Shown here: one piece after another, positions 15,121-55,870 of the stretch
Layout of the letters: the number at the start of each line of letters is the position of its first letter
Position numbering within the stretch: the first letter of the stretch is position 1
DNA from: Halosimplex salinum
GTDB taxonomy: Archaea > Halobacteriota > Halobacteria > Halobacteriales > Haloarculaceae
Direction of reading: 5' to 3'
Assembly: GCF_003730195.1 (NCBI RefSeq)
Contig: NZ_QWGG01000003.1
Span: forward strand, 496,001 to 560,000
DNA length: 64,000 bases
Position numbers and translations under genes: made by a program
The notes under the pieces: model-generated
Seen by the model: only the letters and a program-made list of their open reading frames with translations
The model's database searches: none
What the model was told of the DNA's origin: nothing

Positions 15121-15407
15121 GAGTGAGCCGTGGATAGAAATCGAGCTGGAGTGACCGCAGTCGTCAGCAAGCGCTGAAAGCCCTCGGCGCGCTCGCTCAC
15201 GGCTCACTTTGCCGGCTGTGCTGAGCATTCGCGCGAACGGAGTGAGGCGCGGTTCACCGTCAGAGCAAGCTCTGACGTGCCCGCGGTCGTTCGCAGCGCT
15301 CACTCCCGCGGACACCGAGCGCGAACGCAGTGAGCGCTCGGCCTTTTTCACCCATGTTTTTGCCGGAGGGGTCGCGCCGTGCGCGACCCCTCCGGGAAAA
15401 AGATGGT
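15121..15407 (-). repeat. Composite dispersed element, copy A
   Basis: Read on the minus strand the order is: box 2 (15394-15407, GGGAAAAAGATGGT as plus strand), a perfect 15-bp stem with a 3-nt loop (15363-15377/15381-15395), box 1 (15341-15365), a second hairpin with 8-bp arms CCGAGCGC/GCGCTCGG, a CGCGCGAATGCTnAGnACAGC-type block (15215-15251) and one 57-bp unit (15141-15197). The unit reads as the 19-residue peptide SERAEGFQRLLTTAVTPAR. All parts recur in copy B at 53972-54542 in the same order. Confidence 0.8.
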
Positions 15408-53412: not shown

Positions 53413-53958
53413 ATGGACCTGCTCTCGGCCATCGTGACGGCGCTGTGGGCGATGTTGCCCGCGTACGTGCCGAACAACGCGGCGGTACTGGCGGGCGGCG
53501 GCCGACCCATCGACGGCGGACGGACCTGGGGTGGCAGGCGCGTTCTCGGCGACGGGAAGACCTGGCGCGGCACCGCCGCCGGCACCGCCGCCGGCGTCGC
53601 CGTCGCGCTCGCGCTCAACGCCGCCGCACCGACCATCGGAGACCTGCTCGGCGTCGACCCCGTCGTGTTCCCGCTCCCGGCCGCGTTCGGACTGGCCCTC
53701 GGAGCGATGTGCGGCGACATCGGCGCCTCGTTCCTCAAACGCCGGACCGGGCGCGAACGCGGCGCGCCCTTCCCCGGCCTCGACCAGCTGGACTTCGTCG
53801 TCGGCGCGCTCGCGCTGGCGGCCCTGCTCGACTTCGACTGGGTCGTCGCCACGTTCACGCCGACGGTGCTCGCCGTCGTCCTCGTCGTAACGCCGCTCCT
53901 CCACGTCGTCACCAACGGCATCGCCTACGTCATCGGCGCGAAAGACGAGCCCTGGTAG
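53413..53958 (+). CDS. carS: CDP-2,3-bis-(O-geranylgeranyl)-sn-glycerol synthase
   Basis: 181 aa integral membrane enzyme that activates digeranylgeranylglyceryl phosphate with CTP for archaeal lipid synthesis. It starts [26 protein letters not shown]. The conserved loop [10 protein letters not shown]-like ([14 protein letters not shown]), [17 protein letters not shown] and [13 protein letters not shown] are CarS/DUF46 signatures. Four to five helices. Composite element B begins 13 bp after the stop. Confidence 0.95.
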
Positions 53959-53971
53959 GAACCATCTCGTT

Positions 53972-54542
53972 ACCATCTTTTTCCCGCTCGGGTGTCCTCG
54001 GCGCGCTTCGCGCGCCTGCGGGCACCCTCGCGGCAAAAACATGGGTGAAAAAGGCCGGACGCTTCACTCACTTCGTTCGCTCGCGTCCGGTGAATCGCGC
54101 TCACTTCGTTCGCGCGAATGCTTAGTACAGCACAGATCCTGAACAGGCCGCAGTGGCGCGCGCTGTCGCGCCGTTTATGGCGCGACAGTACCGTGCAAGG
54201 GATGACTGAGCGAACGGAGTGAACGAAGGAATCGGCTGGGGAGGCGTGAGGCTGTTTTGCAGTGCTGTCCTGGCGGACTGAAAGGGCGAGGCGCGCTCGC
54301 GCCGTAGGGGAGTCGCTGTGCGACCCCTATCTGAGCGAGCGCCAGCGAGCGAAGATATGTCGCACAGCGGCCGCGAGCGCACCGAGGGCTTTCACCGGTC
54401 AGCGTCACCTGCGGTCGATTCAACTCGTAGCGAGCGGGTCGAGGGCTTTCTCCGCGCGTTATCATTTACGGTCGAACTAACACCTAGCGAGCGTGCCGAG
54501 CGCTTTCGTCGCTTGCTGTCGACCACGGTCGCGTTCGTTCGA
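53972..54542 (+). repeat. Composite dispersed element, copy B
   Basis: Plus-strand order: box 2 (53972-53985), imperfect long hairpin (about 53984-54033) with GCGCGC-TTC-GCGCGC-like centre, box 1 (54031-54055, exact reverse complement of copy A), hairpin with arms CCGGACGC/GCGTCCGG (54055-54062/54083-54090), the CGCGCGAATGCTTAGTACAGC block (to 54131), about 240 bp absent from copy A, then three 57-bp units. A short frame ATGGGTGAAAAAGGC opens inside box 1 in both copies (MGEKGR). Confidence 0.8.
54372..54542 (+). repeat. Three 57-bp tandem units reading as a 19-residue peptide repeat
   Basis: Units at 54372-54428, 54429-54485 and 54486-54542, exact 57-bp period. In one frame (open 54318-54563) they read RERTEGFHRSASPAVDSTR, SERVEGFLRALSFTVELTP and SERAERFRRLLSTTVAFVR. 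Copy A encodes SERAEGFQRLLTTAVTPAR, 12 of 19 identical to unit 3 without gaps. Confidence 0.75.
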
Positions 54543-54655
54543 GTTCACTCCACGACTCGATAGCCGGAATCAGTGACAACACGTACACGCGAACCCGACA
54601 CCGCTCGAAGGCGGAAGTGGTGAGCTTTTCACGTCGGCGCGTCCACTGAGAGACA

Positions 54656-55870
54656 ATGAGTACGACGCTTCGGCTGGGGACGCGCGGGTCGGCGCTCGCG
54701 ATGCGGCAGGCCGCCACGATCAAGGACCGACTGGAGAACCGCCGCTTCGACGTGGAACTCGTCGAAGTGGAGACCACTGGCGACCAGATCACCGACGAGG
54801 CCATCCACGAACTCGGCAAGACCGGCGCGTTCGTCCGCGCGCTGGACGAGGAGGTTCTCGACGGCGACTGCGACGCCGCCGTCCACTCGATGAAGGACAT
54901 GCCCACGGACCTGCCGGAAGACATGGTCGTCGCGGGCGTCCCCGAACGCGCCGCGCCGCGCGACGTGCTTGTCAGCCGGAACGGAACCTCGCTGGCGGGG
55001 CTCCCCGAGGGCGCCACTGTGGGTACGTCCAGCCTCCGCCGCCGCGCCCAGTTGCTCGCCGAGCGTCCCGATCTCGACGTCCGGCCGCTCCGCGGGAACG
55101 TCGACACGCGCGTCGGGAAACTGCTCGCGCCGCCGCTCCTGCGCGAACACGAGCGGCGCGTCGAGGCCGAAGCCGACGAGGAGGTCGAGGAGTTCGCCGA
55201 GTACAACGTCCCGGACGATGCGGAGGACGACGAAGACGAGGACGAGGACGACGACTCCGAGTACGACCGCACGGTCGAGGAGTGGTTCGAGGACCTCTCC
55301 GAACTCGAGCGGCGCGCGCTGGAGCAGGACCCGGACGTCGACTACGACGCCATCGTCCTCGCGGAGGCGGGGCTCGAACGGGCAGGCCTGCTCCATCACG
55401 TCGAACACCGCCAGCTCAATCCCGACACGTTCGTCCCGGCGCCCAGCCAGGGGACGCTCGCCGTCACCGCCCGCGACGGCGAACTCGCCGAGGAACTCCG
55501 GTCGGTGCTCGACCACGCCCCGACGCGCGTCGAGGCGACCGTCGAGCGCACGGTGCTGGGGGAGCTCGGCGGCGGCTGTGTCGCGCCCATCGGCATCTAC
55601 GCGGTCCTGCAGGGCTCGGTCGTCCGCACCCTGGTCCGCGTCCTCGACCGCGACGGCGACGAGCAGATCCGCGAGACGCGCGAGCTCCCGGTTGACCAGC
55701 ACCCGCGGGCCGCCCGCGAGTTCGCCGCCGACCTGGCCGACGCCGGCGCGGCCGAGTTGATCGAACAGGCCCGCCGACGGAGCGACGAGGCGTCCGGGAC
55801 CGGCGGCGCATCGCCCGAGAGCCCGGAGCCGACCGAGGACGGTGACCGCGACGAGGAGGGCGGCGAGTGA
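54656..55870 (+). CDS. hemC: Hydroxymethylbilane synthase
   Basis: 404 aa, larger than the usual 310. It makes the linear tetrapyrrole from porphobilinogen. Seen: LRLGTRGSALAMRQA, VHSMKDMPTDLP, TVGTSSLRRRAQL, RPLRGNVDTRVGKL and the dipyrromethane-cofactor cysteine C308 in GELGGGCVAPIG. Between RVGKL and DYDAIVLAEAGL lies an acidic insertion of about 75 residues (156-230; EDDEDEDEDDDSEYD), and the tail is also acidic. First gene of hemC-cobA-hemD; 4-bp overlap with the next. Confidence 0.95.
   Translation: MSTTLRLGTRGSALAMRQAATIKDRLENRRFDVELVEVETTGDQITDEAIHELGKTGAFVRALDEEVLDGDCDAAVHSMKDMPTDLPEDMVVAGVPERAAPRDVLVSRNGTSLAGLPEGATVGTSSLRRRAQLLAERPDLDVRPLRGNVDTRVGKLLAPPLLREHERRVEAEADEEVEEFAEYNVPDDAEDDEDEDEDDDSEYDRTVEEWFEDLSELERRALEQDPDVDYDAIVLAEAGLERAGLLHHVEHRQLNPDTFVPAPSQGTLAVTARDGELAEELRSVLDHAPTRVEATVERTVLGELGGGCVAPIGIYAVLQGSVVRTLVRVLDRDGDEQIRETRELPVDQHPRAAREFAADLADAGAAELIEQARRRSDEASGTGGASPESPEPTEDGDRDEEGGE

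What the first reader, a model, noticed from the sequence alone, without database searches (positions are those of the whole stretch)
53972..54542. Composite structured repeat shared with the hel308 upstream region (copies A and B)
Two gaps 38 kb apart carry the same ordered parts in opposite orientation: a 14-nt box and a 25-nt box, both identical in the two copies, flank a hairpin whose stem sequence differs but whose pairing is kept (a perfect 15-bp stem in A; long and imperfect in B). A second hairpin then has different arms (CCGAGCGC versus CCGGACGC) but a related CACTnCGTTCG loop. A shared CGAATGCTnAGnACAGC block and 57-bp units follow. Compensatory change in stems with frozen flanks suggests selection on RNA or DNA structure, or a mobile family such as a REP/MITE-like element. 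T5 tracts on both strands could make it a bidirectional terminator, but copy A sits between divergent genes, where none is needed.
Basis: seen in the sequence. Interest (0 to 1): 0.75.

Follow-up and report, generated by a model that had tools for sequence, protein, structure and literature searches.

The report
Mobile terminator hairpin at gene edges
The two copies belong to a large family of small hairpin elements in salt-loving archaea that insert exactly at the ends or starts of genes, often copying the last 30-110 bases of the gene as they do so, and that probably act as ready-made two-way stop signals for transcription.

Summary
The host is a Halosimplex species. Its genome holds about 41 copies of the box1-stem-box2 element ("E"). 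All seven congeners searched hold 19-43, and 45 of 59 genomes of its family hold some. E is mobile. In other genera, many copies lie between direct repeats (40 of 261 overall, 29-195 nt); in all 35 cases with a clear coding signal the repeat is the end of a neighbouring gene. Four such sites have clean empty counterparts in sister species. Tandem gene-end + E arrays (up to 10 identical 171-nt units) also occur. Insertion is exact: E mostly abuts stop codons (0-7 nt) or sits 38-42 nt upstream of start codons. The box1/box2 pairing covaries (T-A 112, C-G 75 of 196). Inner stems are swapped or inverted between species. 187 of 252 copies carry TTTTTC on both strands, the T5C sequence that terminates 95% of transcripts in Haloferax volcanii. 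Best reading: a non-autonomous mobile bidirectional terminator/insulator. The mover is unknown; I found no reverse transcriptase or IS1634 transposase, and Cas1 is absent from the host. Positions 54146-54542 are a separate, covarying, RNA-like repeat family absent from Rfam.

The parts
53961..53977 (+). Repeated box-1-like leader (ACCATCTCGTT-ACCATC) between the carS stop codon (53956-53958) and box 1
   Evidence: Sequence; a similar 11-nt unit (CCATCTAGTTA) recurs once or twice before box 1 at orthologous sites in congeners
53972..53985 (+). Copy B box 1 (contains CTTTTTC, a T5C terminator for rightward transcripts)
   Evidence: T5C efficiency in H. volcanii from PMC7237163
53986..54033 (+). 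Copy B variable stem 1 (nested hairpin with C.C mismatches flanking T5/A5)
54031..54057 (+). Copy B box 2 (AAAAACATGGGTGAAAAAGG; the minus strand reads CCTTTTTCAC, a T5C for leftward transcripts)
54055..54090 (+). Copy B hairpin 2, directly upstream of the leftward T5C
54092..54122 (+). Copy B hairpin 3; GAAYCG...CGRAYGCT is the right end of the element
54146..54372 (+). Module 2: separate dispersed RNA-like structured repeat
54373..54542 (+). Tandem 57-nt units (GCGAGCG.G.CGAGGGCTTTC...) at the 3' side of module 2
15394..15407 (-). Copy A box 1, about 40 nt upstream of the hel308 start (15448)
15363..15395 (-). Copy A stem 1, perfect 15 bp
15339..15365 (-). Copy A box 2
15315..15341 (-). Copy A hairpin 2
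15259..15313 (-). Copy A extra hairpin arm (GTCCGCGGGAGTGAGCGC...GTCAGAGCTTGCTCTGAC) between hairpins 2 and 3; a near-identical arm recurs in other copies
15224..15255 (-). Copy A hairpin 3
15152..15196 (-). Copy A: only the last unit of module 2 (GCGAGCGCGCCGAGGGCTTTC...)

Best explanation
The box1-hairpin-box2-hairpins unit (about 75-210 nt, 'E') is a non-autonomous mobile element that carries a bidirectional transcription terminator. SHOWN: it is dispersed at tens of copies per genome; it differs by presence/absence between sister species, with clean empty sites; many insertions carry a duplicate of the last 30-110 nt of the neighbouring gene (stop codon at one edge of the repeat), so the gene is rebuilt; one edge of E sits within a few nt of a stop codon or 38-42 nt upstream of a start codon; the conserved parts are two TTTTTC tracts, one per strand, and the pairing between the boxes, while stems turn over. 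INFERRED: E ends transcripts of the adjoining gene at its T5C tract (right after the stop codon, or after hairpin 2 when read leftwards), or shields the adjoining promoter from read-through. This makes insertion at gene edges harmless or useful and explains retention at the same sites for long periods. INFERRED: insertion goes through two offset breaks, one fixed at the gene edge and one 30-110 nt inside the gene, with gap filling, by a host or foreign DNA recombinase not identified here. Once the repeat-E-repeat form exists, recombination between the gene-end repeats makes tandem arrays or removes E precisely.
For: Copy number: 41 in own genome, control 0; 19-43 in each of 7 congeners; 77 of 292 class genomes, my count of the table giving 45 of 59 in the family. 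Mobility: 40 of 261 copies flanked by 29-195 nt direct repeats against about 1 per reshuffle; empty sites aligned without gaps at the junctions in two sister species for gyrA (repeat 74 nt, 92-94% identity), L368 (54 nt) and L361 (48 nt), and in one for the FKBP-type gene L302 (48 nt). Arrays: ten 171-nt gene-end + E units at 99% identity, plus shorter ones in other genomes. Targeting: stop codon within -8 to +7 nt of the E/repeat junction in 27 of 35; box 1 within 0-5 nt of the stop in 30 of 43 Halosimplex copies facing a 3' end, and 38-42 nt from the start in about half of those facing a 5' end. Terminator anatomy: TTTTTC on both strands in 187 of 252; T5C gave 95% termination in vivo in H. 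volcanii (PMC7237163). Structure: box pairing covaries, C.C mismatch kept in 183 of 196.
Against: No termination or RNA data for any copy. Copies with box 1 against a stop codon, and promoter-side copies, never showed a gene-end duplication, so their mode of insertion is not shown and may differ. In Halosimplex itself duplications are rare, and no insertion there could be resolved at base level because intergenic DNA between congeners has diverged. An empty site could also arise by precise recombination between the repeats, although the repeat must first have been made. No mobilising enzyme was found.
Confidence: 0.7

Rival explanations
1. A selfish miniature mobile element with no function for the host. 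Its closeness to gene ends reflects insertion targeting only, and the T tracts and hairpins serve the transposition machinery.
For: Mobility and target duplication are supported; many copies decay or are absent at orthologous sites; about 40% of copies sit upstream of promoters, where no terminator of the gene itself is needed.
Against: Both TTTTTC tracts are conserved across genera while stems are not. Some sites keep the element in all congeners sampled (L033, L042 sites).
Confidence: 0.2
2. Vertically inherited cis terminators whose stems are reshuffled by palindrome-templated DNA synthesis and ectopic gene conversion, without real transposition.
For: Same orthologous positions with different stems; an exact inversion of the inner stem between two species; no G-T excess in stem 1, as expected for a DNA-level palindrome-keeping process; compensatory pairs can arise by template switching without selection.
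Against: Clean empty sites with element plus one repeat copy absent in two sister species, and gene-end duplications at dozens of unrelated genes.
Confidence: 0.07
3. A retroelement-like (target-primed reverse transcription) or Cas1-type (repeat-duplicating spacer insertion) mechanism moves E.
For: Variable-length target duplications with one fixed end resemble target-primed insertion; repeat-insert-repeat arrays resemble spacer acquisition.
Against: No RVT_1 reverse transcriptase in any of 57 family genomes, with controls positive; Cas1 absent from 8 of 14 E-bearing genomes including the host.
Confidence: 0.03

Closest known systems
SPRITE / BOX / RUP repeats of Streptococcus pneumoniae (PMC3049150, PMC10969869)
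   Same: Small, non-coding, intergenic repeats that can cluster; SPRITE is terminator-like
   Different: E is archaeal with a T5C-type tract on each strand, sits exactly at gene edges and duplicates 30-110 nt of gene ends; sequence relation not tested
Haloquadratum short mobile repeats (SMR-A), MITEs and PATEs (PMC3119063)
   Same: Short transposase-free mobile repeats of haloarchaea, some with near-terminal palindromes
   Different: SMR-A and PATE make no target duplication and SMR-A targets other mobile elements; MITEs there carry terminal inverted repeats of known transposons. E targets gene edges, makes long duplications and lacks long terminal inverted repeats
IS1549/IS1634-type insertion sequences (PMC2266710)
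   Same: Long variable-length direct repeats on insertion (8-514 bp reported)
   Different: These are autonomous DDE insertion sequences; no IS1634-family protein over cut-off in 14 E-bearing genomes; stop-codon anchoring is not described in the passages read
T-stretch (T5C) transcription terminators of Haloferax volcanii (PMC7237163)
   Same: TTTTTC tract downstream of genes
   Different: E is a packaged, dispersed, mobile pair of such tracts with conserved pairing

Membership tests
MITE | Short, multi-copy, no coding capacity, insertion polymorphism | tested here: met
MITE | Terminal inverted repeats matching an autonomous transposon | tested here: inconclusive
MITE | Short fixed-length target-site duplication | tested here: not met
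   Repeats are 29-195 nt and variable
PATE / IS200-IS605-derived elements | No target duplication | tested here: not met
Haloquadratum SMR-A | No target duplication; inserts into other mobile elements | tested here: not met
IS1634/IS1549-type | IS1634-family transposase in the genome | tested here: not met
   No match over cut-off in 14 genomes
T5C transcription terminator | T-stretch followed by C downstream of the stop codon | tested here: met
T5C transcription terminator | Transcript 3' ends at the tract in vivo | not testable with these tools
   No RNA data available
Known Rfam RNA family | Match over gathering score | tested here: not met
   region 53900-54660, best E 0.47

The most novel reading that the evidence does not exclude
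A new mobility mechanism: a DNA element that recognises gene boundaries (stop codons and the upstream edge of core promoters) and inserts by breaks 30-110 nt apart, duplicating the gene's end so that the gene is rebuilt and at once gains a terminator, driven by an enzyme class not yet linked to transposition.
Probability: 0.35. Interest if true: 0.9.

Novelty: new variant of a known kind. Interest (0 to 1): 0.76.

Why it matters
Long variable target duplications in prokaryotes are known from few elements and lack a mechanistic model (PMC2266710). Here there are dozens of natural examples with one edge fixed at the stop codon, in culturable haloarchaea, with empty sites in sister species. The family also suggests that an archaeal genome can spread its transcription terminators as mobile parts, which is directly testable by Term-seq and deletion, and it would give a natural bidirectional terminator for haloarchaeal genetics.

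Tried and rejected
Rfam match (none). Reverse-transcriptase-driven retroposition: RVT_1 absent from 57 genomes. Cas1-type insertion: Cas1 absent from the host and several E-rich genomes. IS1634 transposase as mover: none over cut-off. RNA-level selection on stem 1: no excess of G-T over A-C pairs. Vehicles: no phage match, 2 partial plasmid matches, 1 viral contig. Several 'empty' Halosimplex sites proved to be decayed copies, or had intergenic DNA too diverged to align. Exact-match scan of genome collections gave single hits in unrelated bacteria (Pelagibacteraceae, Enterococcus and others), treated as chance. A tRNA-Lys site (L373) carries several partial tRNA 3' ends and may be an old integrase site, so it is not relied on as a clean case. 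Gene identities read by eye were checked with Pfam: L302 is an FKBP-type protein, not a thermosome as first thought; L368 gave no Pfam match and is left unnamed.

Full report
1. The observation. The boxes, stems and blocks are as described. The window belongs to a 5.07-Mb haloarchaeal genome in 28 contigs. A search with box 2 gave 41 places in this genome and none for the reversed control. All seven congeners have 19-43. Across 292 genomes of the class, 77 have at least one match to a stricter 18-nt core; by my count of the printed table 45 of 59 are in the same family, against one match in total for the reversed control. The two window copies are therefore members of a large family, called E here.

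2. Anatomy. E reads: box 1 (CCAYC TTTTT C), variable stem 1 (inner lengths mostly 31-55 nt, sometimes over 100), box 2 (C AAAAA C RTGG GYGAAAAAGG), hairpin 2, usually GTGAACC and hairpin 3, ending near GGAYGCT. Boxes 1 and 2 pair with each other outside stem 1: CCAT with ATGG, CCAC with GTGG. Over 196 unique cores the fourth pair is T-A in 112 and C-G in 75, 187 paired against a shuffled mean of 100; the second pair is C-G in 189 and G-C in 6. The outer C.C mismatch next to T5/A5 is kept in 183 of 196, so the arms are not simply kept as a perfect palindrome. Shuffling ignores relatedness, but the T-A/C-G change recurs across genera. Of 252 unique copies 195 have TTTTTC in box 1, 234 have TTTTTC on the other strand in box 2, and 187 have both.

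3. Stems turn over. At 20 orthologous sites followed through the genus, the same stop codon or promoter often carries E in several species but with different stem sequences, and some species lack E or hold a decayed remnant. At one site (own copy L033) the inner stem of one congener is the exact reverse complement of that of another (G003 v G004). Wholesale exchange and inversion point to template switching or recombination between inverted arms. G-T and A-C pairs are about equally common in stem 1 (107 v 90; 33 v 55 over six stem pairs), so there is no sign of selection for RNA pairing on one given strand.

4. Position. Genes were called with a codon-usage scorer trained on the window, so these figures are not curated annotation. 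When the gene next to box 1 ends there, box 1 begins 0-5 nt after the stop codon in 30 of 43 Halosimplex copies, with a second cluster at 10-14 nt; in other genera 34 of 56 are within 7 nt. When the gene starts there, the distance peaks at 38-42 nt from the start codon. That is just upstream of the expected position of the haloarchaeal core promoter on leaderless genes (general knowledge).

5. Mobility. In other genera many copies have a direct repeat on both sides: 40 of 261 overall, 29-195 nt long, against about one per reshuffle of flanks. In the 35 cases with a clear coding signal, the repeat is the end of the gene on the hairpin side, and in 27 of these the stop codon lies within -8 to +7 nt of the junction. 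The form is flank - gene end - E - gene end - gene. For four sites in one genus (gyrA; an FKBP-type gene; and two others, L361 and L368) the sequence with E and one repeat removed aligns through both junctions in sister species at 88-94% identity without gaps at the junctions: two species for three sites, one for the FKBP-type site. The repeats are 74 nt at gyrA, 48 at the FKBP-type gene, 48 at L361 and 54 at L368. Tandem arrays of gene end plus E occur, the largest with ten 171-nt units at 99% identity. Similar insertions at nuoI-like and argF-like ends recur in several genera with different repeat boundaries (several gene names read from C-termini by eye).

6. How it probably works. Rightward transcripts of a gene ending at box 1 meet CTTTTTC 5-10 nt after the stop codon. 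Leftward transcripts of a gene ending at the hairpin side meet hairpin 2 and then CTTTTTC. In Haloferax volcanii a T5C sequence ended 95% of transcripts in a reporter (PMC7237163). E is thus built as a two-way terminator. Next to a promoter it would stop read-through into the gene and divergent transcription out of it. This step is inferred. The mover is unknown: no RVT_1 reverse transcriptase in 57 genomes, no Cas1 in 8 of 14 E-bearing genomes including the host, no IS1634 protein over cut-off. The closest reported precedent for long variable duplications is IS1549/IS1634 (8-514 bp, no mechanistic model; PMC2266710). Copies with box 1 at a stop codon or facing a promoter did not show the duplication, so their insertion may differ or be old.

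7. Module 2 (54146-54542) is a separate repeat. An alignment of 23 copies has long invariant blocks and seven helices; 20 of 53 pairs have changes on both sides (0 of 500 shuffles, sliding controls 1-6), and one-sided changes are largely G-C to G-U on the plus strand. The structure came from the same alignment, so the percentage paired is biased, but the double changes in helices 6 and 7 are strong. It looks like an unnamed structured RNA family and deserves its own study.

8. Verdict. Observation confirmed; interpretation partly supported. E resembles known small mobile repeats (SMR, MITE, SPRITE) in being short, dispersed and non-coding, but fails defining features of MITEs, PATEs and SMR-A that were tested. 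It is best filed as a new variant of small mobile repeats with unusual targeting and long target duplications. No published description was found in the open-access library with the terms tried; subscription papers could not be searched.

Noticed in passing
window 54146-54542 and L002-L030: Dispersed repeat with seven covarying helices and G-U changes on the plus strand, not in Rfam; probably an unnamed structured RNA family of Haloarculaceae.
   Followed up: partly
L322 (G020:C1:2702600-2706400): Ten near-identical 171-nt tandem units, each the last part of a gene plus one element.
   Followed up: partly
orthologous sites of L031, L058, L059: One or two 11-nt units CCATCTAGTTA precede box 1, like footprints of repeated insertion; CTAG is generally rare in haloarchaea (general knowledge).
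   Followed up: no
own L033/L034 and L038/L062: Pairs of elements facing each other, each with box 1 against its own gene end or start, filling the whole intergenic space.
   Followed up: no
L373 around 548-900: tRNA-Lys followed by several partial copies of tRNA 3' ends with an element between them; possibly an old integrase attachment region.
   Followed up: partly
p4 site (own L034) in G003, G005, G006: Second subfamily with CCCACTTTTT / AAAAACTTGGGGAAAAAGG boxes, pairing kept in changed form.
   Followed up: no
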